Shown here in pieces: positions 1,044 through 22,893 of a DNA stretch of 33,017 bases. The first letter of the stretch is position 1; each line of letters starts with the position of its first letter. The stretch comes from Deltaproteobacteria bacterium (lineage in GTDB: Bacteria; Desulfobacterota; DSM-4660; Desulfatiglandales; Desulfatiglandaceae), in NCBI GenBank assembly GCA_019308785.1, contig JAFDHL010000011.1, positions 1 through 33,017 on the forward strand. Direction: 5' to 3'. Both the position numbers and the translations under genes were made by a program. Under the pieces are notes generated by a model, which saw only the letters and a list, made by a program, of their open reading frames with translations, did no database searches and was not told the origin of the DNA.

Positions 1044-3326
1044 TCATCGCTTAGAAAGTGCTGGGTCCAATTCTTCCTTAACGGCAAGACCTATTTTTTC
1101 CAAAGTATAAGGCTTCTTTATGTATTTTCCCGCACCCAATCTTTGAGCTTCCTTGACACGATCTGTCTCAGAAAATTCACTTGCGATTATTGCTTTCTGT
1201 CCCGGATGCAATTCAAGAATTCTTTTATACGTCTCAAGTCCATCAATTCCAGGGTCCATTATCATATCCAACACCAAAAGATCTGCTGAATTGTTTTTCA
1301 GATATTTAATAGTTTCCTCACCACTTGAAACAGCTTCAGTGGTGTATCCCAACTTGGCAAGCAACCCACATGCAATGTCTCTTTGATTCTCCTCATCATC
1401 AACAACCAGAATCTTCTCGCCATGTCCCATGTAATCTTCAATTGGAACCTGTCCCTCTTCAGCAGTCACTTCGTCTCTGGTTATTGGAAAGTACAGCTCA
1501 AATGTTATACCGTCTTCACCAGTCTTTACGTTTATGTACCCTTCATGATCTTGAACTGTATTCCATACCACAGCCAATCCTAAACCTGTACCGCTTCTTC
1601 CCATAACCTTCTTTGTATAGAATGGTTCAAAAATCCTTTCAAGGTCTTCTGGAGATATCCCCGGACCATCGTCTGATACGGTCATAACGGCATATTCGCC
1701 CCGGCGTATATCTTCATAACCCTTAATCGGTTCATCTAAATACATATTAATAGTCGATACAATAACGTTACCCCTATCCTCAATTGCCTCCGAAGCATTC
1801 GTAATTAAATTCATTAAACTCTTTTTTATATGGGATGATGAACAACTTATATTCAGAAGGTCGGAATCAAGCTGTGTTTTGAAAGTTATAGATGGACGCA
1901 TTGTAGCCAGTTTCTTGTGTTCCGGAGATTGTAAATATTCTTCTATTACGGTGTTCAAGTTTAAGACTTCTTTACCGGTAGCTACCCCCCTGGCTACAGT
2001 CAGTAAGTCTGAGACAACAGCAGCGGCTCTCTGTCCAGAATTTTGTATTATCTCAATAGGCTTTCTAAGTGGGCTGTCTTCAGGGAGATCCATTAAGAGT
2101 AAATCAGGATAGCTTACAATCCCCGAGAGTATGTTATTCAAATCGTGGGCAATACCTCCCGCCATAAGGCCCAGAGCTTCCATCTTTTGGGATCGCTGTA
2201 GTTGTTCCTGTAACCTTTGTACCTTGCGTTCAGAAAAAACCTTCTCAGTAATATCTCGTCCAGAACCACTTATAAATGGTTCCATTCCCTCTTGTCTCAC
2301 CAACACATTTCGATATTCTATATAGTGCTTTGACCTATCCTTAGCTAAGTAGATGGTTACTCCATCAATAGAGCCTTTTTCTTTGATTTGTTGCAGGTAT
2401 TCCTCTTTGAAGGCCTGCCGGTATTTTGGAAGCATAAAATCACTAATGGGACGGCCAATAAGGTCTTTAGGAATGTAACCTAAAGTCTCAGCTGCAGCCC
2501 GGTTTACCGTGATGAATCGGCCCTCAAGGTCGTGTGAATAGATGAAATCGGTAATACTGTTAATTAGCTCACGGTATCGCTCCTCGCTCTCCCGCAGGGT
2601 CTCCTCTGCCTGCTTGCGTTCCTCAACTTCCAATTCCAGTTCTTTTTTTGCGTCTATCAGGTGCGACCGCTCTCTTTCCAAGGTGCTGGTCAAATCCCTT
2701 TCTTTATGATGAATTGAGACAAGGCCCTTAACCAGTACTGCTACGGATATCGCGGCGATCGTGTTCAAAAGCATGAAATTCGCACCTGCAACTATCATCG
2801 CTTCCGTGGTGTTGAAAAATGGAAACGTCTGGCCAAATAGGCCTGCACTGATGAGCCAGCCTATAATCGTAAGACTGATCGCGTTAACGGTTAAGGCCAT
2901 AATCGCGGCTTTTGATCCCAGTAGAACCCCGACAAGGACTGCAAAACCAAACAGCCACGCAGGGCCACCACTCAAGGGGCCAACAAAAATAATTACGACC
3001 AATCCAATAGCATAGACTATCAGCAAGGCTATTGCTGCGCGTATTTCATATCTCAGACGACGTGATAATAGGAGGCTAAGGCCAATTACCCAGGCAAATC
3101 CATTGAAGATCAAAAGACCCCACAAGTTTTCTTTTATCAATAAGGTAATTACGGGCACGAAGGCAAAAAGGGCTAACAATAACCCAGTGAAAATAATCGC
3201 AAATAGAATACGCACCCGCCAGTAAGTGAGGCTGTCTTTCTCTATGACTGAAGAAGGAGCCATCCTATTCATGGCAAAGGCTTGAAATCTTTGGAAGTAA
3301 CCTAGTTTACTTTCGGTCGGTTTCAT
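1044..3326 (-). CDS. Membrane-bound hybrid sensor histidine kinase (PAS, HisKA, HATPase, receiver)
   Basis: A 760-residue membrane sensor kinase. Residues about 38-210 hold roughly six hydrophobic segments. A coiled coil and one PAS domain follow (about 250-365). The dimerisation/phosphoacceptor helix has the box GGIAHDLNNILSG with His394. The ATPase domain shows the N-box NLITNASEAI, DDGPG (about 552-556) and GTGLGLA (about 579-585). A C-terminal receiver (about 638-755) has DD near its start, phospho-acceptor Asp687 in LLVLDMIMD and the conserved Lys in KKPY. There is no DNA-binding output, so phosphotransfer to another protein is expected. An upstream in-frame start exists at 3386, but AGGAAAGG lies correctly before the ATG at 3326, so I chose that. 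The ligand is unknown. Confidence 0.9.
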   Translation of the reverse strand: MKPTESKLGYFQRFQAFAMNRMAPSSVIEKDSLTYWRVRILFAIIFTGLLLALFAFVPVITLLIKENLWGLLIFNGFAWVIGLSLLLSRRLRYEIRAAIALLIVYAIGLVVIIFVGPLSGGPAWLFGFAVLVGVLLGSKAAIMALTVNAISLTIIGWLISAGLFGQTFPFFNTTEAMIVAGANFMLLNTIAAISVAVLVKGLVSIHHKERDLTSTLERERSHLIDAKKELELEVEERKQAEETLRESEERYRELINSITDFIYSHDLEGRFITVNRAAAETLGYIPKDLIGRPISDFMLPKYRQAFKEEYLQQIKEKGSIDGVTIYLAKDRSKHYIEYRNVLVRQEGMEPFISGSGRDITEKVFSERKVQRLQEQLQRSQKMEALGLMAGGIAHDLNNILSGIVSYPDLLLMDLPEDSPLRKPIEIIQNSGQRAAAVVSDLLTVARGVATGKEVLNLNTVIEEYLQSPEHKKLATMRPSITFKTQLDSDLLNISCSSSHIKKSLMNLITNASEAIEDRGNVIVSTINMYLDEPIKGYEDIRRGEYAVMTVSDDGPGISPEDLERIFEPFYTKKVMGRSGTGLGLAVVWNTVQDHEGYINVKTGEDGITFELYFPITRDEVTAEEGQVPIEDYMGHGEKILVVDDEENQRDIACGLLAKLGYTTEAVSSGEETIKYLKNNSADLLVLDMIMDPGIDGLETYKRILELHPGQKAIIASEFSETDRVKEAQRLGAGKYIKKPYTLEKIGLAVKEELDPALSKR

Positions 3327-3553
3327 TAAAGTTATCTTTCCTTTCCTGATGTCCTTAAAAATAGAAAAGCCCACCTCCAAAAGCAAAAAGTGGGCATCTT
3401 AATAGAATTATCTGGCAACCCCGCTACCTTCTCCGTTTCAAAGAGATTAAAGCCGGAGGCTTTGCGTCCCAACCTTTCGGAAGGTTTGCCTTACAGCGCA
3501 ATAATTTGGCCTACTTTTTATATCGGTATCTTGGTTAAAAACTTTAATATCCT

Positions 3554-6500
3554 TCAATCGCCCTTATCTATATCATCCAACGCTTCACGGATCGTCTTAG
3601 CAAGATCCTTCATCACAATAGGCTTCATAAGGAAGCCCTTAATTCCCAGTGTATCAGACTTTCCCTTGGAAATCTTTTCACTGAATCCGGTGCAAAGGAT
3701 AATCGGAATATCAGGGCGGATCTTCATAAGCTCTGCTGACAGTATGTCCCCTGTCATATTCGGCATGGTCATGTCTGTGATAACAAGATCAAATTTTTCT
3801 GGTTGTTCTCGAAATGCCTTTAACGCATCCGTGCTGCTGGTACGTTCAACAACCTGATACCCGAGCCGCTCAAGCATCTGTTTTTCCAGGGAAACGATCT
3901 GCTCCTCATCATCTACCAGCAATATACGTTCATGGCCGGTCGGTAATGCCTCATCGGATACAGTCTCTGATGAAACAGAGGCTTCCTTTATCCGGGGCAA
4001 ATAAACATGGAAAACAGTCCCTTTACCCGGCTCACTGTATACCCGTATATCCCCTCCACAACTTTTAACAATTCCATGGACCACCGCAAGGCCCAACCCG
4101 GTGCCCTTGCCCTTTTCCTTGGTGGTAAAGTAGGGGTCAAAAATGCGATCTATAACAGATTGATCCATTCCATGTCCGGTATCGCCCACCTTCAAACAAA
4201 TGTACGGCCCCGGCTCCATATCCAGACCGGTTAAATCATCAACCGTTAACTCAATTTCGTTCAGGTTTACCTCCAGAGTGCCTCCGGTCTCATCCATGGC
4301 ATGATAGGCGTTGGTACATAGATTCATTACTACTTGATGTATCTGGGTGGGATCTGCCATGACCAGACCGCAGTCTTTTTCTATATTCTGACGTATTCCA
4401 ATGGTAGTGGGCAGGGAAGACCTGATCAGTTTTAATGCTTCCCTTACAACGATTTGAACCTTTAAGGGTTTTAACTCCTGATCCTGTTGACGACTGAAGG
4501 TAAGAATTTGCTGAATCAGATCCCTGGCACGCAATGCACTTCTTAGAATCCCATTTTGATTCCTTCGGACTACGCTGTCTTCAGGCACATCGCCGATTGT
4601 CATCTCTGCATACCCAATAATGGGAAAGAGGATATTGTTAAAATCATGGGCAATGCCACCGGCAAGTGTGCCGATGGCCTCCATCTTTTGGGCCTGCTGG
4701 AGCTGGGCTTCCATTTTCCTCAAGTTGGTAGTATCTCTAAAAACAGTCATCTTTGAAATAGATCCATCTTCGTGAACAATAGGCAAACTGGAAACATGGT
4801 AAGAGCGGTTATCCTTCGGGCTGACAATATCTGACTCAAAGGATTCACCTTGTAGTATCTTATTGTGCATACACCATGGGCATTTTTCGTCCAGGTCGTG
4901 TATGGCTTTGAAACAATTTTCTCCTGTGGCATCACGGCCTGTCCTTTTGGTCATGGCAGGATTCATATATTCAATTCTATAATCCGGCGAGCAAATATAG
5001 ACCGGCTCCTTCATCGATTCCATCATCGACCGGTATTTCTCTTCGCTTTCCTTCAGTGCGTCTTCCGTGCGCTTGATATCGGTTATGTCCTGTACTGTTC
5101 CAATTGAGCGTAACGGATGGCCATCCTTATCGTATTCAGTACGGCAGATTTCATTCACATATTTAACCGTCCCATCTTTAAGTAATAGGCGATGAACAAT
5201 ATTGTAGGGAGTCTTTTTTTTCACAGAATCAGTATAAGATTTATCAACCAATTCCCTGTCATCAGGGTGCACTGCATCAATAAACGCTCCATAAGAGGCA
5301 TCAAATTCCATCGGATCGATTTCAAAAAGAGAATAAATTCCATCCGACCAGTACAGGCTATTTGAAACCAAATCCAGTTCCCACTGCCCTAAACGTGCAA
5401 TGTTTTGGGATTCTCTAAGTCTTTCTTCACTCTCCCGCAGTGTTCTCTCTGCTCGCTTGCGCTCGGAGATGTCAATGATAAAGCCTTCGATATATCCATA
5501 CTGGGGATAAATGATCCCACTTACCTCTACATGTATATGCGATCCATCTCTCCGAAATTCCTCAATTTCAAATCCATCAACTTTGCCATTTTTTCTTAGC
5601 AGTTTTAGCAGCTCTTCGCGACGTTCGGGATTTACATAACTTTTCGAGGTGTAAAATTCTTCTTTGAGCTCTGCCACTGTTTCATAGCCAAAGATTCTTG
5701 CGAAAGCTAAGTTCGCTTCAAGGACTTTGCCCTCCTCGATTGTTGTCCGGTACATGCCGACCATTGCTGTATTAAATAGACTACGATATTTTTCTTCGCT
5801 CCCCTGCAACGCCTCCTCGACTCGCTTGCGTTCGGTAATGTCATCATAGACCGCAACAATTTCACCTGAAGGTAACTTGTAGACATAGTTTTCTCTCCAG
5901 CCAGCAATTCTCTGGTCCTTGTACAAGGAGATAGGTTGATCTTCGGGCTTGCCTGTCTCCCAAACCCTCTTAAAAACATCAAAAAGGCCAAATTCCTTAA
6001 CCTCTGGAAACACCTCAAGGACACTTTTACCTATAAGATCTTCTTTTTTAATGTTTTCAATCAGCTCCGCAGCCCGGTTGAAATCTTTAAAGATAAAATC
6101 ATTTCCATTATCTTTTGCTTCATAAATCGCAACACCGCTACTTATGTTGTCGAAAAGTTTACGGAAGCGCTCATCGCTCTCCCGCAGCGCCTCCTCCTCT
6201 CGCTTTCGTTTGGAGATATCCCGATAAATCCCATAAGCGCCTATCACTTTTCCATCTATGATTATCGGCACACCAATGAATTCAACGTCTATATATGCCC
6301 CGTCTTTCCTCTGTCGTTTACCTGATCCATGAATCGCCTTCCCCCTAAGGGTTTCTTTTGTATATGATATGGCATCTTCAATGTATTCTTGACCAGCAAT
6401 AAGTTCATCAAGATTTATTCCAACCATCTCAGATTCTTTAAAATAAAAAAGTTTCTCAAAATCTCGGTTACATGAAATAATATTATGCCCTTCATCAAGG

Positions 6501-6652
6501 GTCACTATGGCTAACGAGCTGTACTCAATTAATGAGTCTAAACGTCTTTTTTGAAGGTTTAAATCCTCTTCAGCTCGTTTACGTTTAAAGAATTCTTTCT
6601 CTAACTCCTCAACCCTTTGCTCCAATTCTTCATACGTTGGTTTTCCGGACAT
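3554..6652 (-). CDS. Soluble five-PAS hybrid sensor histidine kinase with C-terminal receiver
   Basis: A 1032-residue cytoplasmic sensor kinase without clear membrane segments. Five PAS domains lie in tandem (roughly 35-150, 160-275, 285-400, 413-525, 537-647), joined by short linkers of the type ESEEKYRS. The fifth contains CFKAIHDLDEKCPWC, a cysteine cluster that could bind metal or sense redox. The kinase core follows: LAGGIAHDFNNIL with His669, N-box NLCTNAYHAMD, GDTGHGMD, and GKGTGLGLAVVHG. A terminal receiver has VDDEE and phospho-Asp960 in LVITDMTMPN. The ATG at 6652 is preferred to 6667 because GGAGG precedes it and the paralogue at 542 starts at the matching residue. The tandem arrangement with the kinase at 3326 suggests a sensory cluster, but no cognate regulator lies next to it. 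Confidence 0.92.
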   Translation of the reverse strand: MSGKPTYEELEQRVEELEKEFFKRKRAEEDLNLQKRRLDSLIEYSSLAIVTLDEGHNIISCNRDFEKLFYFKESEMVGINLDELIAGQEYIEDAISYTKETLRGKAIHGSGKRQRKDGAYIDVEFIGVPIIIDGKVIGAYGIYRDISKRKREEEALRESDERFRKLFDNISSGVAIYEAKDNGNDFIFKDFNRAAELIENIKKEDLIGKSVLEVFPEVKEFGLFDVFKRVWETGKPEDQPISLYKDQRIAGWRENYVYKLPSGEIVAVYDDITERKRVEEALQGSEEKYRSLFNTAMVGMYRTTIEEGKVLEANLAFARIFGYETVAELKEEFYTSKSYVNPERREELLKLLRKNGKVDGFEIEEFRRDGSHIHVEVSGIIYPQYGYIEGFIIDISERKRAERTLRESEERLRESQNIARLGQWELDLVSNSLYWSDGIYSLFEIDPMEFDASYGAFIDAVHPDDRELVDKSYTDSVKKKTPYNIVHRLLLKDGTVKYVNEICRTEYDKDGHPLRSIGTVQDITDIKRTEDALKESEEKYRSMMESMKEPVYICSPDYRIEYMNPAMTKRTGRDATGENCFKAIHDLDEKCPWCMHNKILQGESFESDIVSPKDNRSYHVSSLPIVHEDGSISKMTVFRDTTNLRKMEAQLQQAQKMEAIGTLAGGIAHDFNNILFPIIGYAEMTIGDVPEDSVVRRNQNGILRSALRARDLIQQILTFSRQQDQELKPLKVQIVVREALKLIRSSLPTTIGIRQNIEKDCGLVMADPTQIHQVVMNLCTNAYHAMDETGGTLEVNLNEIELTVDDLTGLDMEPGPYICLKVGDTGHGMDQSVIDRIFDPYFTTKEKGKGTGLGLAVVHGIVKSCGGDIRVYSEPGKGTVFHVYLPRIKEASVSSETVSDEALPTGHERILLVDDEEQIVSLEKQMLERLGYQVVERTSSTDALKAFREQPEKFDLVITDMTMPNMTGDILSAELMKIRPDIPIILCTGFSEKISKGKSDTLGIKGFLMKPIVMKDLAKTIREALDDIDKGD

Positions 6653-6960
6653 TAGAAGCTCCTCCAAAGATAAAATCGCTTCATTATTTCATACGATACG
6701 GCTTTGATGCTTTTAAAATCAGAACTCCGTGCGTTTCAGTATACCATTCCATTTGTTGACTATTTTACAACTTTAGAGTTGAACCCTGTTTTCCTTATTC
6801 TTTGCTTTCCCCGCGTTCATGTACTCTGTAAATCATATATCAATAAAATAACAAAATCAATTTCAGTATCCAATTAGTATCATTGACTTTTATCGACTTT
6901 CAAGGCTTGCCCATTGGGACTATACTGGAAGTTGACGGTGATGATCTGATGATGACAGGA
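6653..6960. repeat. Duplicated leader/promoter region, copy B
   Basis: Counterpart of 543-850, upstream of the five-PAS kinase. The TATACT hexamer on the minus strand is at 6738-6743, and the flanking 30 bases are almost identical to copy A. The similarity fades towards 6960, where a short plus-strand ORF begins. Confidence 0.65.
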
Positions 6961-12728: not shown

Positions 12729-13217
12729 ATGGAGCCTGAAAAGATTCTTAAAGGAAAAAGAGTCTTGATCGTAGACGATGAAGAGGACATTCTGGAGTTT
12801 CTGACGGAAATCCTGGATATGTGTAAAATTGACAGGGCCTCGACTTTCGAGGAGGCAAAAGAATTACTTGAATCCAATTTTTACCATGTTGCTGTCCTTG
12901 ATATTATGGGTGTCAGGGGATATGAACTACTGGAGATTGCCAACAAAAAAGATGTGCCTGCCCTGATGCTTACTGCCCACGCGCTTTCAAAAGATAATCT
13001 CAAAAAATCTTTTAAAGAGGGTGCCTCGTTTTATGTGCCCAAGGATGAAATGAATAAAATCGATGTCTTTCTGGCAGATGTCCTTGAGGCAAAGGAAAAT
13101 AAAAAAAATGTGTGGCTCAAGTGGTACGAACGGCTCAGCTCATTTTGTGACAGAAGGTTCGGGCCAAACTGGAAAGATGAAGACCCTGAATTCTGGGATA
13201 ATCTTCTAAAATATTAA
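12729..13217 (+). CDS. Small response regulator with atypical receiver and aromatic C-terminal tail
   Basis: A 162-residue protein. The receiver domain spans about 9-120 with the acidic pair Asp16-Asp17, phospho-acceptor Asp58 in VAVLDIMGVRGYELL, Thr82 in LMLTAHA and Lys105 in YVPKDE. The loop after Asp58 is two residues shorter than the canonical DxxMPxxxG pattern. There is no known output domain; instead residues 128-162 form a conserved tail (WYERLSSFCDRRFG, then W and EFW). A paralogue lies at 25302. AAAGGAGG stands 7 bases before the ATG. The fbp gene begins 34 bases after the stop, so the two are probably cotranscribed. Confidence 0.85.
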   Translation: MEPEKILKGKRVLIVDDEEDILEFLTEILDMCKIDRASTFEEAKELLESNFYHVAVLDIMGVRGYELLEIANKKDVPALMLTAHALSKDNLKKSFKEGASFYVPKDEMNKIDVFLADVLEAKENKKNVWLKWYERLSSFCDRRFGPNWKDEDPEFWDNLLKY

Positions 13218-13251
13218 CTTCTTGCCAACTATTTCTAAAGGCGAACTTGAC

Positions 13252-14286
13252 ATGGAAAAACAGGGTGCGGGAATTACCGTTACTCAACACATATTAAAAC
13301 AACAACGGGAAAATCCTGAGGCGACCGGAGCCTTTACAACCCTGCTCAATGAACTCATAGTTGCAGCCAAAGTCATCTCCCGGGAAGTGAACAAGGCGGG
13401 TCTCGTGGATATTCTGGGAGCCACGGGAAAGATAAATGTGCAGGAAGAGCAGGTACAGAAATTAGACGTGTTTGCAAACCAGATTATCATAGAGCGGATG
13501 CAGCACATTGGCCAACTATGGTGCATGGTCTCTGAAGAAGACCCGGACCTCATTGGTATCCCCTCGCAATATCCGAAGGGAGACTATATTCTCTTATTTG
13601 ATCCCCTGGACGGTTCTTCCAACATTGACGTTAACGTGAGCATCGGGACTATTTTCGGCATTTTCAAGAAAAAAGACAGCGATTCGAGCTCCGACCTGCT
13701 GCTGGGCGATGTGCTGCAACCCGGAATTAGTCAGGTCGCTGCCGGCTATTTTATCTACGGTTCAAGCACCATCATGGTATACACTACGGGTAACAATACG
13801 GGTGTCCACGGGTTCACGCTGTTTCCGAGCCTTGGCGAATTTCTCCTCTCCCACGAGAATATCCGTATCCCCGAACAGGGTAAAATCTACAGCATCAATG
13901 AGGGTAACTGTCCTTACTGGGATGAAAGGACCCTGGCCCTTGTTGACTATTTCAAGACCAGAAATAAAGAGACCGGCCGTCCTTACACATCCAGATACGT
14001 GGGCAGCCTGGTGGCGGATTTTCACAGAAATCTTCTCAAGGGCGGCATCTTCATGTATCCGGCTGACAATAAGGATCCCAAGAAGCCTACGGGAAAACTG
14101 AGGTTGATGGTGGAAGCCAATCCCCTCGCAATGGTGGTCAAGGAGGCGGGCGGGTATGCCAGTGATGGACACGGCCCCATCCTCGAAATAGCTCCGCTCG
14201 AATTACACCAGAGAGTTCCCCTGTACATCGGGAGCAAGAAGGACGTGGAACTGGCAGAGGCATTCATTAGCGGCAAGAGAAGCTGA
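13252..14286 (+). CDS. fbp: Fructose-1,6-bisphosphatase class I
   Basis: A 344-residue gluconeogenic enzyme that hydrolyses fructose-1,6-bisphosphate to fructose-6-phosphate. Visible signatures are SEEDP (about 94-98), the metal/substrate site LLFDPLDGSSNIDVNVSIGT (about 115-134), the substrate region YVGSLVADFHRN, and KLRLMVEANPLAMVVKEAGG with its metal-ligand Glu (about 288). Length is normal for the bacterial enzyme. The ATG at 13252 gives the standard start MEKQGAG; the TTG at 13222 is less likely. It follows the response regulator by 34 bases. A PFK-2/FBPase-2 homologue 4.4 kb away raises the possibility of fructose-2,6-bisphosphate control, which inhibits eukaryotic class I FBPase; that is inference. 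Confidence 0.95.
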   Translation: MEKQGAGITVTQHILKQQRENPEATGAFTTLLNELIVAAKVISREVNKAGLVDILGATGKINVQEEQVQKLDVFANQIIIERMQHIGQLWCMVSEEDPDLIGIPSQYPKGDYILLFDPLDGSSNIDVNVSIGTIFGIFKKKDSDSSSDLLLGDVLQPGISQVAAGYFIYGSSTIMVYTTGNNTGVHGFTLFPSLGEFLLSHENIRIPEQGKIYSINEGNCPYWDERTLALVDYFKTRNKETGRPYTSRYVGSLVADFHRNLLKGGIFMYPADNKDPKKPTGKLRLMVEANPLAMVVKEAGGYASDGHGPILEIAPLELHQRVPLYIGSKKDVELAEAFISGKRS

Positions 14287-14290
14287 ATAC

Positions 14291-14938
14291 TCACGCCTCC
14301 ACAGAATAAAACCTTACCTCCGGAAGCTCCAGGCATGTCAACCGGTTGCCATAAACGGCACCCGTGTCCAGGCCGATCTTGTTTTCAATGACCAGGGGTT
14401 CATGGAAGGGGGTATGGCCGAAGATGACCCTTTTCCCGAAATCATAATCAGAGTAGATAAAAGGCTCGCGGATCCAGGTCATGTCCTCGAGGAGCTGTTT
14501 TTCTATTTCCACGCCCGGCCTGAAACCGGCATGAACCACATAGTAATCCTCAAGCTCTATATAAGTCTTCAGTGACTGGTAAAAGGCCATGTGGTCCGGG
14601 GGGACCAATGACCCATCCCCTTCCGGCTTTTCCGCCCTATAGCTTTCCAGCGTGCTCCACCCGCCGTTTCTGAAATACAACCCGCGATCCTTGCCATTCA
14701 TGTAATCCAGGAAAAGGACTTCATGGTTCCCTATAAGGCAGTCAATTTGAGAAGAACACCTGCGTAGTGCCAGCACGTAATCCACTACGCCTTTTGAATT
14801 TTCGCCCCTGTCTATGTAATCCCCCAGAAAGATAAGCCGGTCCTTTTCAGGTTGCCAGGCGATTTTGTCCATGAGCCTTTTAAGCATGTCCAGGCAACCA
14901 TGAATATCGCCAATAACAAATATCCTTTTGCTATCCAT
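14291..14938 (-). CDS. Serine/threonine-phosphatase-like metallophosphoesterase
   Basis: A 215-residue PPP-family phosphoesterase, cytoplasmic. The metal-binding signatures are in order: GDIHG (10-14), GDYIDRG (39-45), GNHE (70-73), VVHAGF (His136) and FGHTP (His175). Members cleave phosphoproteins or dinucleoside tetraphosphates; the sequence alone does not decide. Its ATG overlaps the stop codon of the radical SAM gene (TAATG), so the two are translationally coupled. It converges with fbp with a gap of four bases. Confidence 0.88.
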   Translation of the reverse strand: MDSKRIFVIGDIHGCLDMLKRLMDKIAWQPEKDRLIFLGDYIDRGENSKGVVDYVLALRRCSSQIDCLIGNHEVLFLDYMNGKDRGLYFRNGGWSTLESYRAEKPEGDGSLVPPDHMAFYQSLKTYIELEDYYVVHAGFRPGVEIEKQLLEDMTWIREPFIYSDYDFGKRVIFGHTPFHEPLVIENKIGLDTGAVYGNRLTCLELPEVRFYSVEA

Positions 14939-15870
14939 TAGAACCTGAAGATCAGGCGAGGGCGCTCCCTGGGATCAAGCCGGGTCAGTCCCGCTTTTAT
15001 GGCTGCATCAACGGCATTTCTGTATTCCTGTGAGGTCAGGCGCCGGTTAATGAATTCATCCTGATCCGCACTGCCGCATGGCCTGTATTGGTCCATGACA
15101 TTAATATATGTGTCTGGAGAGATCTCCTTTGCAAGAAACTCCATAATTTTCCCGGTTCCCGCAACCTGCTTAGGCATAACCAGATGCCTCACCAGCAATC
15201 CCTTAACTGCGATCCCTTCATTATCCATTACAAGATCCCCGACCTGCCGGTGCATTTCCCTTATAGCGTCCATGGCTATTTCTCTGTAATCCGGTGCATT
15301 GCAGAATCTCTCTGCCCATTTCCCGTCCCAGAACTTGAAATCCGGCATATAAATATCGAATATGCCATCCAGAAGCTGCAAGGTCTCCTTATCGTCATAC
15401 CCGCCGGAATTATAAACCAGCGGCACTTCGAGGCCCTGCTCAATGGCCAGAACAAGGGCTTCGATGCTCTGGGGGACCACATGGCTCGGCGTCACGAAAT
15501 TGATATTATGACAACCCCTTTCAGCCAGGTGTAACATCATGGCAGCCACCTGTTCGGGCTCAACCTCGGTCCCTTCCGCAAGATGGCTGATATCATAGTT
15601 TTGGCAGAAGCTGCAAAGCAGATTACAGGAGCTTAAGAATATAGTACCCGAACCATATCGCCCCACTAAGGGCCCCTCTTCTCCAAAGTGGGCATTAAAG
15701 CTGGCGACCCTGGCCTTTCTTCCCGTCCGGCAGTATCCGGTTTCCCCTTCCAGCCGGTTCACTCCGCATGCACGGGGACAAAGATGGCAGGCTTCCATCA
15801 TATCAATAGCCTTTTCCAGCCTGGCTGAAAGCTCACCATTTCGATATAGTTTTAAATAGGAAGGCTCCAT
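14938..15870 (-). CDS. Radical SAM protein, PflX-like (pyruvate formate-lyase activase-related)
   Basis: A 310-residue radical SAM protein. The N-terminus has a Cys cluster (Cys28, Cys31, Cys35, Cys47 in MEACHLCPRACGVNR and GETGYC), followed by the radical SAM motif CNLLCSFC (Cys82, 86, 89) that binds the 4Fe-4S cluster cleaving S-adenosylmethionine. The arrangement and length fit the COG1313/PflX group, related to glycyl-radical activases and to AmrS, but the substrate is unknown. It forms a two-gene operon with the phosphoesterase downstream. The start is ATG 15870, with a weak ribosome binding site. Confidence 0.85.
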   Translation of the reverse strand: MEPSYLKLYRNGELSARLEKAIDMMEACHLCPRACGVNRLEGETGYCRTGRKARVASFNAHFGEEGPLVGRYGSGTIFLSSCNLLCSFCQNYDISHLAEGTEVEPEQVAAMMLHLAERGCHNINFVTPSHVVPQSIEALVLAIEQGLEVPLVYNSGGYDDKETLQLLDGIFDIYMPDFKFWDGKWAERFCNAPDYREIAMDAIREMHRQVGDLVMDNEGIAVKGLLVRHLVMPKQVAGTGKIMEFLAKEISPDTYINVMDQYRPCGSADQDEFINRRLTSQEYRNAVDAAIKAGLTRLDPRERPRLIFRF

Positions 15871-15893
15871 GATCCACTAAACTATTTAAAACA

Positions 15894-15933
15894 GTATCCC
15901 CCTGACAAGACTGATGCTTATACAGGGGGATAC
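15894..15933 (-). terminator. Strong hairpin between yccA-like gene and radical SAM gene
   Basis: An 11-bp perfect inverted repeat, GTATCCCCCTG and its complement, with an 18-base loop. On the minus strand it is followed by TGTTTTAAATAG, which suits a terminator for the Bax-inhibitor-like gene ending at 15970. The T-run is short, so a processing or regulatory hairpin in the radical SAM leader is the alternative. Confidence 0.5.
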
Positions 15934-15969
15934 CGTGAAACCATATAAGGCCGGATTCTTTTAGCAATC

Positions 15970-16674
15970 TCAATCCCGGCCGGTCCCAAATATCCTGAGG
16001 AGCATCAAAAACAGGTTGATAAAATCAAGATAGAGGGAAAGTGCTCCCAATATGGCCCCCTTTCTTATCACGGCACCATCCAGATCCGCGGGTTGCGTGA
16101 GGGCCATATTTTTCAGTTTCTGGGTGTCATATGCCGTTAACCCTACAAAGACTATAACTCCGATATAGCTGATGATCATGCTCATGCCGCTGCTCCGGAT
16201 AAACATGTTCACCAGAGAGGCGATAATGATCCCAATCAGCCCCATCATGAGGAATCCACCCCAGGAGGTCAGGTCCTTTTTGGTAGTCCAGCCGTAGATA
16301 CTGCATCCGATAAATGTTCCGGCGCAGATAAAAAAAGTGCTTACGATAGATGAGCGGGTATAGGCCAGAAATATAAAAGAGAGGGTAACCCCGTTCAGGG
16401 TTGAATAGAGCACGAAAAGAGACGTGGCAGTCCCGGCACTCATCCGGTTAACCATCCCCGCGATGGAAAACACCAGGCCTAATTCGGCTAAGATAAGGAC
16501 AAAAAAGATAAGCGGGTTTCCGAAAATGAGACGCAGCATGGTCTCACTGCTTGATACATAAAGGGCTACAAACCCGGTCAGGGCAAGCCCTATGGCCATC
16601 CAGTTGTAGACGCTTCTTATGAAATCATTCACCACGACCTCTGTCCTGGGTCTTGTGGCGGAAATCTGAGCCAT
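15970..16674 (-). CDS. Bax inhibitor-1/YccA family membrane protein
   Basis: A 234-residue protein with seven predicted membrane segments. The family signature is visible: NDFIRSVYNWMAIGLALTG near the N-terminus, the central FLAYTRSSIVSTFFICAGTF, and YDTQKLK followed by GALSLYLDFINLFLMLLRIFG at the end, where conserved acidic residues form the pH-sensitive latch in the family. Members act as calcium-leak channels or modulate FtsH. An in-frame ATG at 16710 exists, but AGGAGG lies 9 bases before the ATG at 16674, so I use the latter. Confidence 0.9.
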   Translation of the reverse strand: MAQISATRPRTEVVVNDFIRSVYNWMAIGLALTGFVALYVSSSETMLRLIFGNPLIFFVLILAELGLVFSIAGMVNRMSAGTATSLFVLYSTLNGVTLSFIFLAYTRSSIVSTFFICAGTFIGCSIYGWTTKKDLTSWGGFLMMGLIGIIIASLVNMFIRSSGMSMIISYIGVIVFVGLTAYDTQKLKNMALTQPADLDGAVIRKGAILGALSLYLDFINLFLMLLRIFGTGRD

Positions 16675-16861
16675 ATTATTTACCTCCTCGAATTTTTTAG
16701 TAATGTTCAAAATTTTTGCATGGGATATGAATTCATCCGATTCCCGTGTATGGATTCTCAGATGCCTAAATCCTGACTGATCTTAAAATAGTGAAGGTTT
16801 TGAACGTTACCAATTAATTATAAATGCTTCTTGCAAAACTTCAAGTGTTCTGGGACTTCTT

Positions 16862-18121
16862 TCATGCTTTGATCGGATCACAAGCCTCAAGGTCCTTGAT
16901 TCTTTCGAGCAGAGGCGGATGGGAATAGTTGAACCATACATAGAGAGGATGGGGTCGAAGATTTGACAGGTTATCCTTTGCCATTTTCTTTAAAGCCCTT
17001 ACGAGGGGACCGGAGTCGTTCATGATTCTGAGTGAATAGATGTCAGCCTCTCGTTCAAACATCCTGGAAATGGCCATTCCAACAGGACCCAGGAAAAAAC
17101 TGACAGGCTCCCACATAATGCCCACCAGAAAAAGTCCTGCATACTCTGGCATAACGGAAAATCCGAAACTTTCAAACATGAGGCTCCATGTGATCATCTT
17201 CGATGCCAGGAAAAAGAGCAAAACCGAAACTGCCGCGGAAACGGCAAGCTGCTTCTTAATATGGTTTTTCTTGAGATGTCCGATCTCATGGGCCAGCACC
17301 GCCACGATCTCGTCCACGTCATGGGATTGAATCAGGGAATCGAACAGCACAATCCTTTTCGCCTTTCCAAGACCCGAAAAATAGGCATTTGTATGCCGGC
17401 TTCTCTTCGTGGCATCCATCTGGTAGATGCCCTTTATTTCAAGCCCTTCCCTTTTCGCCAGTTCCTCTATTCTGAGGACAAGTTCAGGGTCGTCAATGGG
17501 CGTAAACTTGTTGAAAAGGGGCGCGATGACCGTGGGGTAAAGAACCGTCATAAGCAATTGAAAACCCAAAAAAACGGCACAAGCCCAGACCCACCACATG
17601 TCGCCGGCATACCTGACTAGCAAGAAGAGCGATGAAAGCAGAATACCGCCGAGAACGATGATCAGCAGAAATGCCTTGGCAATATCGGAAACCCAGATCT
17701 TAACGGTTTTTGTGTTAAACCCGTACCGTTCCTCGATAACAAAGCTGTGATAATAATCAAAAGGGAGGTCCGTAATTGCGGTCAAGAGCCCGGGAATCCC
17801 AAAAAATATGAGCCCGGCCAATACAAAATTGATATCAGACAGTGCATTGGCCAACCAGGGAAGAATCCCGGAAAGTATGATGAAGAGAAAAACGATCTTA
17901 TGTACACTTGTTTGGACCAGGGTAAAACTGGTATTGTCCTGGGTATATTGACGGATCTTTTTTAGTTCTTCCTCGACAATAACCCCTTTGAACGCCTCGG
18001 GGACCTTTTCTCCGGCTTTTCCGGCATAATCGGCGTTGATTTTGTCTATCGCCAGATCCGCGAGAGAACTAATCACATAGACAACAAGATAAATAATCAA
18101 AAACGAATTAAAAGCTATCAT
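16862..18121 (-). CDS. M48 family zinc metalloprotease, Ste24/CAAX prenyl protease-like
   Basis: A 419-residue membrane protease. Several hydrophobic segments (about 5-20, 75-115, 145-170, 178-200, 290-345) surround the catalytic site LAHEIGHLKKNH (HEIGH 278-282), with the third zinc ligand Glu356 in SRMFEREAD, and the Ste24-type C-terminal SHPPLLERI. The N-terminal ~200 residues also match Ste24 rather than the shorter HtpX. In bacteria these proteases are thought to act in membrane protein quality control, since CAAX prenylation is absent. AAGGA stands 8 bases before the ATG. Confidence 0.92.
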   Translation of the reverse strand: MIAFNSFLIIYLVVYVISSLADLAIDKINADYAGKAGEKVPEAFKGVIVEEELKKIRQYTQDNTSFTLVQTSVHKIVFLFIILSGILPWLANALSDINFVLAGLIFFGIPGLLTAITDLPFDYYHSFVIEERYGFNTKTVKIWVSDIAKAFLLIIVLGGILLSSLFLLVRYAGDMWWVWACAVFLGFQLLMTVLYPTVIAPLFNKFTPIDDPELVLRIEELAKREGLEIKGIYQMDATKRSRHTNAYFSGLGKAKRIVLFDSLIQSHDVDEIVAVLAHEIGHLKKNHIKKQLAVSAAVSVLLFFLASKMITWSLMFESFGFSVMPEYAGLFLVGIMWEPVSFFLGPVGMAISRMFEREADIYSLRIMNDSGPLVRALKKMAKDNLSNLRPHPLYVWFNYSHPPLLERIKDLEACDPIKA

Positions 18122-18250
18122 TGCGACAATCCTTGCTTATACTACTCACAACAATATAGATTCACCCGTTCTGATAGTCAAAGTATTTGGTCCTCATAGA
18201 ATACCGATGGCCTAACACCTTAGCTTTAAAAAAAACCAAACGTAATGTAT

Positions 18251-18525
18251 AGGGACATGGGGGTCTCTTTTCAAAAGCCGCATATGCTGACATCATTTCT
18301 TCGCGCAGCCTGCGGTGCGCTCAGTCCCCGCAAGCGGGTCCCCGGTTTCATGGAACCGCTAGTGAGGCCCTAAAATTCATCCCGGAACAGCCCCATAAGG
18401 GACCCTTCGTCGTGGCGTTGGCCTTTGCTGCCTGTGCGGAGGCCTTATATTTGCGTGTCTGGGGGCGTTCGACTAGTTCAGAAGAATTTGTGATGCGATT
18501 TTTGAAAAGAGACCCCCATGGCCCT
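18251..18525. mobile_element. MITE-like element with terminal inverted repeats
   Basis: A 275-bp non-coding unit bounded by a perfect 21-bp inverted repeat (18256-18276 and 18500-18520, core GGGGGTCTCTTTTCAAAA), extended outward to 26 bp with one mismatch. There is no transposase inside. An open frame on the minus strand (18348-18572) is probably fortuitous, though its RPQTRKYKASAQAAK stretch reminds me of peptides predicted from dispersed repeats in related genomes. No clear target-site duplication is seen. It lies 120 bases before the PFK-2-like gene and may influence its promoter. Confidence 0.65.
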
Positions 18526-18644
18526 TCAATCCACAATTGGTTTTTCCAAAGACCTAATATATCAAAACCCATGTGTACTGTTTCTCAAAACTCCTTCCTG
18601 TCTTTTGTATTGAATTTTTTCCGGCAAACAGTAAGATCAAGTTC

Positions 18645-19856
18645 ATGGAAGACGAAATACTCTATATCGTCATGGTCGGCCTTCCTGCCAGGGGAAAATC
18701 CACCATCGCGAGCAAGCTTAGAGATAATCTCATAAGGGATGGCATCCGGACTCGGATCTTTAATAACGGGGATTTGAGAAGAAAGCTCTTCCTGAAAGAC
18801 ACATCTCATTCGGGATTTTACGACCCGAAAAACAGAGAGGGTGTGGCATTAAGGGAAAAAATCGCTCTTACAAATATACGGCGGGCCAAAGACTATATGG
18901 GCAATAATGGACAGGTAGCTATCCTCGATGCAACGAATGTCAGTATCAAGAGGAGAAAAAAGACCACCAGCCTGCTCGGGGATCATACCATTCTCTTTAT
19001 CGAATGTGTAAATGAAGATAAGGAAATCTTAGAGGCCAGTATTCTCAGGAAAATAAACCTCCCGGAATTCAAACACCTGAGAAAAGAAGAAGCGGTCCGG
19101 ACCTTTAAAGAACGGATACGATACTACCAGAGCATTTACAAGCCACTTAAAGGTGAGAGAAATTTTGTCAGGCTGGATTCTCTGAAGAATCAAATCCTGG
19201 CTGAAGAGATCGCAGAAGATATCCCTTACTATGACCGGATCAGAGACTTTCTTGTGACAGATACAGTCAAGAATCTGTTCGTGGTCAGACATGGCGAGAC
19301 ATATTTTAACCTGGAAGACAGGATAGGCGGGGATTCCGCCCTAACGGAAAATGGAAAGGTTCAGGCCAGGGCCCTTGCAGCATATTTCAGAAAGAAAAGG
19401 ATTCCTTTCATCTTCACAAGCAATAAGAAGCGGTGCATCCAGACAGCCGAACCCATCAGGCGATCACAAAAAAACAGCATCATTATTCCTTTTGAGGAAT
19501 TCAATGAAATTGACGGCGGGGTCTGTGAATGCATGAGCTATGAAGAAATCCGGAAAAAAATGCCCCACGTCTATTCGGCAAGGAGAGCGGACAAGTACAA
19601 TTACATCTACCCGGCAGGCGAAGGGTATGTTTCCATGAAAAAACGGGTTGAAATGGGTATCAGAAAGGCGCTCTATCTAAGCACCAATTCCGAGAATATA
19701 ATGATTATCGGACATAGGGCAGTGAACAGGATGATTCTTTCGCATTTTCTCTATCGTCGAAAAGAGGATGTTCCCTTTATATATATCCCCCAAGACAAAT
19801 TCTACCATATTGTCACCACCCAAAATAAAAAGCTTTTCCAGCTAAAAAAGTACTGA
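18645..19856 (+). CDS. Bifunctional 6-phosphofructo-2-kinase / fructose-2,6-bisphosphatase homologue
   Basis: A 403-residue protein with the complete PFKFB architecture. In the kinase half: Walker A GLPARGKST (12-20), FNNGDLRRKL (39-48, matching the eukaryotic FNVGEYRR), LDATNVSIKRRKK (94-106), FIECVNEDKEI and RIRYYQSIYKPL. In the phosphatase half: LFVVRHGETYFNLEDRIGGD (His216 nucleophile), FTSNKKRCIQTAEPI, FNEIDGGVCECMSYEEI (Glu288), YPAGEGY and IIGHRAVNRM (His357). All three catalytic residues of the bisphosphatase remain. The product would make and break fructose-2,6-bisphosphate. The ATG at 18645 fits the domain start; an ATG at 18573 would add 24 residues without homology. It is rare in bacteria. 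Substrate specificity is unproven. Confidence 0.88.
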   Translation: MEDEILYIVMVGLPARGKSTIASKLRDNLIRDGIRTRIFNNGDLRRKLFLKDTSHSGFYDPKNREGVALREKIALTNIRRAKDYMGNNGQVAILDATNVSIKRRKKTTSLLGDHTILFIECVNEDKEILEASILRKINLPEFKHLRKEEAVRTFKERIRYYQSIYKPLKGERNFVRLDSLKNQILAEEIAEDIPYYDRIRDFLVTDTVKNLFVVRHGETYFNLEDRIGGDSALTENGKVQARALAAYFRKKRIPFIFTSNKKRCIQTAEPIRRSQKNSIIIPFEEFNEIDGGVCECMSYEEIRKKMPHVYSARRADKYNYIYPAGEGYVSMKKRVEMGIRKALYLSTNSENIMIIGHRAVNRMILSHFLYRRKEDVPFIYIPQDKFYHIVTTQNKKLFQLKKY

Positions 19857-21975: not shown

Positions 21976-22026
21976 TAACAATTGAACCTCCTTGACATTC
22001 AGCGAACAGAGTGTCAAATAAAAGAT

Positions 22027-22893
22027 ATGTTCGAGCAAGGAATCCAGATAGAATACTGGCCCAAACTGGACGATCCTGTACTCATTGCCGGGTTTGACGG
22101 CTGGGGAAATGCACTGGATATCTCAAGCGCCATGGTATCGTACATGATTCGAAAGCTTAAAGCAGAGCATTTTGCCAAGGTAAATCCCGACTTCTTCTAC
22201 CGCTATGATGAAAATCGTCCTGTCGTGAATATTGAGGACGGGACACTTAAAAGCGTTTCATCACCCGGGGGCTCATTCTATACCGTGGAGACCGGTTCAA
22301 ACGGAAGGGATATCGTTATATTGAAGGCCAACGAGCCAACCCTTCGGTGGTTTCACTTTGTGGACGAACTGTTTTCCCTTTGCCAAAAGCTGGGAATCAG
22401 GACCATCATTACCCTTGGTGGCATGTACGACAACGTGCTCCATTCGGACAGGATTATATCAGCGATTGCATCAAGCGATGCACTCTCTTCCAGGCTGAAA
22501 GAAAAAAACGTCATTCCGATCAACTACCGGGGGGCCAGTGCAATTCATTCCACCATCCATTCGGAGGGCCAGGCACGGGGGTTTGAATGCGTCAGCCTGT
22601 GGTGTCATTGCCCATATTACCTCCAGGGGGCAACGCACTTCGGGATCCTGTCCCATTTAGGTGCTTTGTTGTCATTTTTGGTGGGATTTGAACTGGACCT
22701 GGAAGAACTTGATGTAAGTTGGAAAGAGCTAAACAGACAGATTCAAGGGCTAATAGAAAAGAATCCCGAACTGCAGGAAATGATCAACGAACTCAGAAAA
22801 GCAAAAGTAAGGGGTTCCTGGGCGAGCATGAAGGTGTCAGAGAAAAAAGACGAAAAGGTCATACAAATAGCAGATTTCTTAAAGCCGAGGTAA
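22027..22893 (+). CDS. PAC2 family protein (proteasome assembly chaperone-like)
   Basis: A 288-residue cytoplasmic protein with the PAC2 layout: an N-terminal PVLIAGFDGWGNALDISSAM, the central LCQKLGIRTIITLGGMYDNV, and the later NYRGASAIHSTIHSEGQARG segment. It ends in a helical region rich in Lys/Glu. In archaea and actinobacteria the family is linked to proteasome assembly or ATP-grasp-like folds; in deltaproteobacteria its role is unknown and no proteasome genes are visible. I prefer ATG 22027 over the TTG at 21982. Convergent with the sirtuin gene, 5 bases apart. Confidence 0.8.
   Translation: MFEQGIQIEYWPKLDDPVLIAGFDGWGNALDISSAMVSYMIRKLKAEHFAKVNPDFFYRYDENRPVVNIEDGTLKSVSSPGGSFYTVETGSNGRDIVILKANEPTLRWFHFVDELFSLCQKLGIRTIITLGGMYDNVLHSDRIISAIASSDALSSRLKEKNVIPINYRGASAIHSTIHSEGQARGFECVSLWCHCPYYLQGATHFGILSHLGALLSFLVGFELDLEELDVSWKELNRQIQGLIEKNPELQEMINELRKAKVRGSWASMKVSEKKDEKVIQIADFLKPR

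What the first reader, a model, noticed from the sequence alone, without database searches (positions are those of the whole stretch)
18645..19856. Eukaryote-style PFK-2/FBPase-2 in a bacterium, 4.4 kb from class I FBPase
The protein keeps the Walker A and FNxGxxRR-type motifs of the kinase and all three catalytic residues of the bisphosphatase (His216, Glu288, His357) in the eukaryotic order. Fructose-2,6-bisphosphate is considered a eukaryotic regulator that inhibits class I FBPase, and a class I FBPase (13252-14286) lies in the same neighbourhood. Together they could form a bacterial fructose-2,6-bisphosphate control loop in an autotroph-like metabolism.
Basis: partly seen in the sequence, partly recalled or inferred. 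Interest (0 to 1): 0.8.

Follow-up and report, generated by a model that had tools for sequence, protein, structure and literature searches.

The report
Bacterial PFK-2/FBPase-2 homologue beside FBPase
A bacterium of a sulfate-reducer lineage carries a complete version of the two-headed enzyme that makes and destroys fructose-2,6-bisphosphate, a sugar-control signal thought to belong to eukaryotes, and relatives of the gene occur in nine bacterial families and in anammox bacteria, nearly always together with the enzyme that this signal normally inhibits.

Summary
Window 18645-19856 (+) encodes a 403-aa 6-phosphofructo-2-kinase/fructose-2,6-bisphosphatase matching human PFKFB3 over the catalytic core (E 5e-63; about 37% aligned identity). 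The ATP site, the fructose-6-phosphate residues and the phosphatase triad are intact, and nearly all are invariant in 44 bacterial homologues. The host is a Desulfobacterota MAG of the NaphS2 family. The gene is not a stray transfer: 30 of 37 genomes of its family, nine families in a 297-genome phylum sample, anammox Planctomycetota and a Nitrospirota carry it.

A class I FBPase lies 3-7 kb upstream on the same strand in 23 genomes of the order, but within a larger inherited block with opposite-strand genes between, so adjacency is weak evidence. Stronger: all 43 gene-positive genomes of the phylum sample have class I FBPase, against 128 of 254 gene-negative ones; class II FBPase shows no association (8/43 vs 45/254).

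Best reading: a bacterial fructose-2,6-bisphosphate switch acting on class I FBPase. Enzyme identity is well supported by sequence; activity, the metabolite and FBPase inhibition are unshown. A 2026 preprint still calls this regulation eukaryote-specific. Direction of transfer between bacteria and eukaryotes is unresolved.

The parts
18645..19856 (+). PFKFB-like bifunctional enzyme gene, 403 aa
   Evidence: Pfam 6PF2K + His_Phos_1; full-length match to PFKFB3, E 4.9e-63 to 2axn; AlphaFold model mean pLDDT 87.6
18651..19214 (+). 6-phosphofructo-2-kinase domain (residues 3-190)
   Evidence: Pfam PF01591, E 7e-39; G12 G17 K18, R45 R46 R70 D95 R103 K136 R157 Y161 invariant in 44 bacterial homologues and identical in PFKFB3
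19275..19823 (+). fructose-2,6-bisphosphatase (histidine phosphatase) domain (residues 211-393)
   Evidence: Pfam PF00300, E 4e-35; R215 H216 N222 R226 E288 Y299 R313 K317 Y328 H357 R362 invariant and identical in PFKFB3
19290..19292 (+). catalytic His216 codon (inferred phosphohistidine)
   Evidence: aligned with PFKFB3 His254 in 2axn numbering
19506..19508 (+). catalytic Glu288 codon
   Evidence: aligned with PFKFB3 Glu323
19713..19715 (+). catalytic His357 codon
   Evidence: aligned with PFKFB3 His388
13222..14286 (+). class I fructose-1,6-bisphosphatase (inferred target); start may be 13252
   Evidence: Pfam PF00316/PF18913; NCBIfam class 1 FBPase above cut-off; E 4e-94 to 2gq1, active-site segments conserved
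12729..13217 (+). response-regulator receiver protein 4 nt before the FBPase ORF, same strand; conserved neighbour
   Evidence: Pfam PF00072; next to FBPase in many of the relatives that hold the region
14291..18121 (-). four genes between FBPase and PFKFB: metallophosphoesterase, radical SAM, Bax1-I, M48 peptidase; most of them part of the conserved block

Best explanation
The gene encodes a core-only bacterial PFK-2/FBPase-2. The N-terminal P-loop domain transfers phosphate from ATP to C2 of fructose-6-phosphate. The C-terminal histidine-phosphatase domain removes that phosphate through a phosphohistidine at His216, with Glu288 and His357. The enzyme therefore sets the level of fructose-2,6-bisphosphate, which binds the active site of the class I FBPase and slows gluconeogenesis; PPi-type PFK could be a second target. 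Shown here: homology over the full length, intact substrate and catalytic residues, wide conservation, and close co-occurrence with class I FBPase. Inferred: both activities, presence of the metabolite, FBPase inhibition, and what tunes the kinase/phosphatase balance. My estimate is about 0.8 for the enzyme assignment and 0.55 for FBPase as the main target.
For: Two Pfam domains well above cut-off in eukaryotic order. All top sequence hits in the PDB are PFKFB isoforms; E 5e-63 with one sequence, 3e-86 with the bacterial profile; no listed PDB match other than PFKFB covers the kinase half. Foldseek: the 26 best hits are all PFKFB; the phosphatase domain superposes on the rat liver bisphosphatase at 2.6-2.7 A, TM 0.86 by target. 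Residues that family knowledge assigns to ATP and fructose-6-phosphate binding and to bisphosphate hydrolysis are identical to PFKFB3 and invariant in 44 bacterial sequences; position 263 is Arg throughout where PFKFB3 has Ser303. Conservation: 30/37 family genomes, 43/297 phylum genomes in nine families, 207 loci in the genome collection. Co-occurrence with class I FBPase: 43/43 vs 128/254, Fisher p 5e-12; 26/26 genera, p 3e-8; nine/nine families, p about 0.002; the GlpX control shows no association (8/43 vs 45/254). Of 16 genomes reached through named loci, 14 have class I FBPase. The host FBPase keeps its substrate-binding segments.
Against: No activity or metabolite data. Adjacency to FBPase is inherited block synteny. 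The neighbours differ from lineage to lineage and show no metabolic partner in most. Two of three host PFKs look PPi-type, and characterised bacterial PPi-PFKs are reported as non-allosteric (PMC12203962), so the classical PFK-1 arm may be missing. Whole-chain superposition on PFKFB3 is poor (TM about 0.5, rmsd about 17 A), so the modelled domain packing differs or is wrong. Gly217 of the RHG motif is Thr or Ala in 18 of 44 bacterial homologues and Thr97 is Ser or Ala in 9, although both are canonical in the window protein. Two of 16 genomes reached through loci lack a class I FBPase match.
Confidence: 0.68

Rival explanations
1. The enzyme makes and breaks fructose-2,6-bisphosphate, but the main target is not FBPase: the metabolite activates one of the host's PPi-type phosphofructokinases, as in plants, or another enzyme such as pyruvate kinase, as in trypanosomes.
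For: The host genome has three PFK-family genes, two with sequence signatures typical of PPi dependence. Fructose-2,6-bisphosphate activates plant PPi-PFK (PMC12203962).
Against: Characterised bacterial PPi-PFKs are described as non-allosteric. The strict class I FBPase co-occurrence points to FBPase.
Confidence: 0.2
2. Same fold and chemistry on another sugar phosphate (for example another ketose phosphate), giving a different bisphosphate signal or an intermediate.
For: About 37% identity to PFKFB3 leaves room for a change of specificity; 6PF2K is related to other P-loop kinases (AAA_33 hit); stand-alone relatives of the phosphatase domain include alpha-ribazole and phosphoserine phosphatases.
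Against: The fructose-6-phosphate contact residues known for the family are kept and, except Thr97, invariant; both domains stay fused and co-conserved across phyla.
Confidence: 0.1
3. A recent transfer from a eukaryote, or a contaminating contig, with no settled role in the host.
For: The circuit is usually described as eukaryotic (PMC12873801), and the window is a MAG contig.
Against: Present in 30/37 family genomes with conserved synteny; bacterial sequences in the tree set are 48% or more identical to each other and about 37% to PFKFB3, which falls on a long branch; also found in strains such as NaphS2 and Fundidesulfovibrio agrisoli.
Confidence: 0.02

Closest known systems
Eukaryotic PFK-2/FBPase-2 (PFKFB1-4; PFKFB3 structures 2axn, 6iby)
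   Same: Domain order, core length, ATP and fructose-6-phosphate residues, phosphatase triad and bisphosphate-binding residues; best hits by sequence and fold
   Different: Bacterial; 403 aa with almost no N- or C-terminal extension; about 37% identity; residue 358 is Arg where PFKFB3 has Gln389 and residue 263 is Arg where PFKFB3 has Ser303; modelled domain packing does not superpose as a whole
Plant F2KP with fructose-2,6-bisphosphate-regulated PPi-PFK
   Same: If active, would share the metabolite, and the host has PPi-type PFKs
   Different: No large N-terminal extension; regulation of host PPi-PFK untested; no plant sequence was compared here
Bacterial histidine phosphatases (CobC, PhoE, phosphoserine phosphatase PspA)
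   Same: Phosphatase-domain fold and RHG/H catalysis
   Different: None of these NCBIfam models reaches its cut-off; they lack the kinase domain

Membership tests
PFK-2/FBPase-2 (PFKFB) family | N-terminal 6PF2K domain fused to C-terminal histidine phosphatase domain | tested here: met
   133.9 and 121.8 bits, both far above cut-off, in that order
PFK-2/FBPase-2 (PFKFB) family | Intact ATP site (Walker A) and fructose-6-phosphate Arg/Lys/Tyr cluster | tested here: met
   G12 G17 K18 R45 R46 R70 D95 T97 R103 K136 R157 Y161 identical to PFKFB3; S19 stands for Thr49
PFK-2/FBPase-2 (PFKFB) family | Intact bisphosphatase site (His, Glu, His plus Arg/Tyr/Lys ligands) | tested here: met
   R215 H216 N222 R226 E288 Y299 R313 K317 Y328 H357 R362 all identical to PFKFB3
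PFK-2/FBPase-2 (PFKFB) family | Tertiary structure of each domain and of the whole chain | tested here: inconclusive
   phosphatase domain superposes well (TM 0.86 by target); whole chain only to TM 0.5, domain packing uncertain
PFK-2/FBPase-2 (PFKFB) family | Synthesises and hydrolyses fructose-2,6-bisphosphate | not testable with these tools
   needs enzyme assay
Fructose-2,6-bisphosphate control of class I FBPase | Class I FBPase with intact active site in the same cell | tested here: met
   43/43 gene-positive phylum genomes
Fructose-2,6-bisphosphate control of class I FBPase | FBPase inhibited by fructose-2,6-bisphosphate at physiological level | not testable with these tools
   needs assay

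The most novel reading that the evidence does not exclude
Fructose-2,6-bisphosphate is a genuine bacterial signal metabolite: Desulfobacterota of at least nine families, and anammox bacteria that acquired the gene from them, use a core-only PFKFB to switch class I FBPase and hence gluconeogenesis. The eukaryotic PFKFB and this bacterial clade share an ancestral fusion, so the circuit is not exclusive to eukaryotes; a bacterial origin of the eukaryotic enzyme is not excluded.
Probability: 0.5. Interest if true: 0.8.

Novelty: new member of a known kind. Interest (0 to 1): 0.62.

Why it matters
Fructose-2,6-bisphosphate is taught as a eukaryotic invention, and a January 2026 preprint states that its regulation of PFK appears eukaryote-specific (PMC12873801). 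A conserved bacterial PFKFB that, in the phylum sample, occurs only with class I FBPase makes that claim directly testable with two purified proteins and one metabolite assay. It would add a control point for carbon flow in sulfate reducers, syntrophs and anammox bacteria, and it bears on where the eukaryotic enzyme came from.

Tried and rejected
Polynucleotide kinase/phosphoglycerate mutase fusion: rejected, PDB and Pfam give PFKFB for the kinase half. Eukaryotic contamination or recent transfer: rejected. Operon with FBPase: rejected, four opposite-strand genes lie between, and adjacency is a feature of one order. Loss of the FBPase AMP site as a sign of replacement by fructose-2,6-bisphosphate: the residues equivalent to Lys112, Glu29 and Arg140 are changed in the window FBPase (D, A, K), but the same positions vary in gene-negative genomes too, so no link. 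Several of the FBPase segments were read in the wrong frame by the script (rows with '----' at the second motif) and were ignored. Conserved partner gene in other lineages: neighbours differ in each lineage (HAD hydrolase, inositol monophosphatase-like, Maf, MltA, PLD, threonine synthase). Direction of transfer between bacteria and eukaryotes: one mammalian sequence was used as the only eukaryote, and its branch is very long, so no root can be placed. 16S rRNA for naming the host: none found in the assembly.

Full report
What is there. The ORF at 18645-19856 (+) encodes 403 residues. Pfam finds 6PF2K at residues 3-190 and His_Phos_1 at 211-393, both about five times their cut-off. phmmer against the PDB gives PFKFB3 at E 4.9e-63 for the full-length chain 2axn over residues 7-383, then other PFKFB isoforms; after these come only phosphatase-domain relatives. 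A profile of 15 bacterial homologues reaches 3e-86. No NCBIfam model reaches its cut-off for this protein.

Active sites. On a 45-sequence alignment (44 bacterial plus PFKFB3), the ATP loop, Arg45, Arg46, Arg70, Asp95, Arg103, Lys136, Arg157 and Tyr161 of the kinase, and Arg215, His216, Asn222, Arg226, Glu288, Tyr299, Arg313, Lys317, Tyr328, His357 and Arg362 of the phosphatase, are identical to PFKFB3 and invariant in bacteria. That these residues bind ATP, fructose-6-phosphate or fructose-2,6-bisphosphate is established knowledge of the PFKFB family, not something tested here. Residue 263 is Arg in all bacteria where PFKFB3 has Ser; from memory, that Ser is linked to the weak phosphatase of PFKFB3, so the bacterial phosphatase is probably competent.

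Structure. AlphaFold gave mean pLDDT 87.6 and pTM 0.85. The 26 best Foldseek hits are PFKFB entries. The phosphatase domain matches the rat liver bisphosphatase (TM 0.86 by target, 2.6-2.7 A), but whole-chain TM is about 0.5, meaning that one domain superposes and the other is placed differently. I do not interpret the packing from a 15-row alignment.

Host. G000 is a 4.0 Mb MAG in 399 contigs, 95% complete. The host is therefore in the NaphS2 family of Desulfobacterota (Desulfatiglandales by my knowledge of GTDB).

Distribution. The gene is present in 30 of 37 genomes of the family including the host, and in 39 of 61 relatives overall. In an even sample of 297 genomes of the phylum, 43 have it, in nine families and 26 genera. 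The genome collection gives 207 confirmed loci; the 80 kept include Smithella and other Syntrophaceae, Desulfonatronospira, Fundidesulfovibrio, Candidatus Scalindua and Brocadiaceae, and a Nitrospirota MAG. In Planctomycetota only the Scalindua query genome of 294 had the full gene; in Nitrospirota 1 of 198, again the query genome. The four anammox sequences nest inside a well-supported clade with two Desulfobacterota sequences (99/97), which indicates transfer into anammox bacteria.

Link to class I FBPase. In the host order FBPase and PFKFB lie 3-7 kb apart on one strand in 23 genomes, inside a block AI-2E transporter, response regulator, FBPase, metallophosphoesterase, radical SAM, Bax1-I, (M48), PFKFB. 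Because the inner genes are on the other strand and the whole block is inherited, this is weak functional evidence. The stronger evidence is co-occurrence. In the phylum sample 43 of 43 gene-positive genomes have class I FBPase against 128 of 254 gene-negative ones (Fisher p 5e-12). Collapsed to genera it is 26 of 26 where 109 of 199 genera have it (p 3e-8), and by family nine of nine (p about 0.002; my family totals are approximate counts). Genomes are related, so these p-values overstate independence; the family-level figure is the cautious one. Class II FBPase (GlpX) is a negative control: 8 of 43 gene-positive genomes, all in one family that also has class I, against 45 of 254 gene-negative ones. 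Among 16 genomes reached through named loci, 14 have class I FBPase, including all four anammox genomes and the Nitrospirota. In the relatives set, two gene-positive genomes lack an FBPase match: one is 69% complete, the other has only part of the PFKFB gene.

Other possible targets. The host has three PFK-family genes. Two read GGTDS/PKTIDRD and GGDDT/PKTMDND, the pattern that family knowledge assigns to PPi dependence; the third, GGNGT/PVTIDSD, is atypical. A 2025 review says that all characterised bacterial PPi-PFKs are non-allosteric, while plant ones are activated by fructose-2,6-bisphosphate (PMC12203962). FBPase therefore remains the better candidate target.

Mechanism and limits. Most likely the enzyme sets fructose-2,6-bisphosphate according to metabolic state, and the metabolite brakes class I FBPase. 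What tips the kinase/phosphatase balance is unknown: the protein lacks the eukaryotic regulatory extensions, and no consistent regulatory gene sits next to it. The metabolite has not been shown in these cells.

Novelty. A 2026 preprint states, citing Michels and Rigden 2006, that PFK regulation by fructose-2,6-bisphosphate appears eukaryote-specific (PMC12873801). I found no held paper describing a bacterial PFKFB, but the 2006 paper itself is not held. As a protein it is a new bacterial member of a known family; as a regulatory circuit it would be new for bacteria.

Noticed in passing
window 18231-18545: MITE-like element with 53-nt terminal inverted repeats (79% complementary, 209 nt between) lies about 100 bp upstream of the PFKFB start codon; its core GGGGGTCTCTTTTCAAAA occurs 23 times in the genome with at most one mismatch, against 0 for the reversed control, several as pairs.
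   Followed up: partly
L079, L083, L084, L090: Anammox bacteria (Scalindua, Brocadiaceae) carry the gene nested among Desulfobacterota sequences, an apparent inter-phylum transfer.
   Followed up: partly
window 13222-14286: FBPase residues equivalent to the AMP-site Lys112, Glu29 and Arg140 are Asp, Ala and Lys; similar changes occur in the phylum with and without PFKFB, suggesting weakened AMP inhibition in many Desulfobacterota FBPases.
   Followed up: partly
L034, L037, L041, L047, L048, L052: One group of bacterial PFKFBs has RHT or RHA in place of the RHG phosphatase motif while keeping the catalytic His, Glu and His.
   Followed up: no
window 1044-6667: Two large hybrid histidine kinases in tandem, one with a MASE11 membrane domain and PAS, one with several PAS domains.
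   Followed up: no
window 21982-22893: PAC2-family protein (proteasome assembly chaperone-like) in a bacterium, next to a SIR2 deacylase and conserved in several relatives.
   Followed up: no
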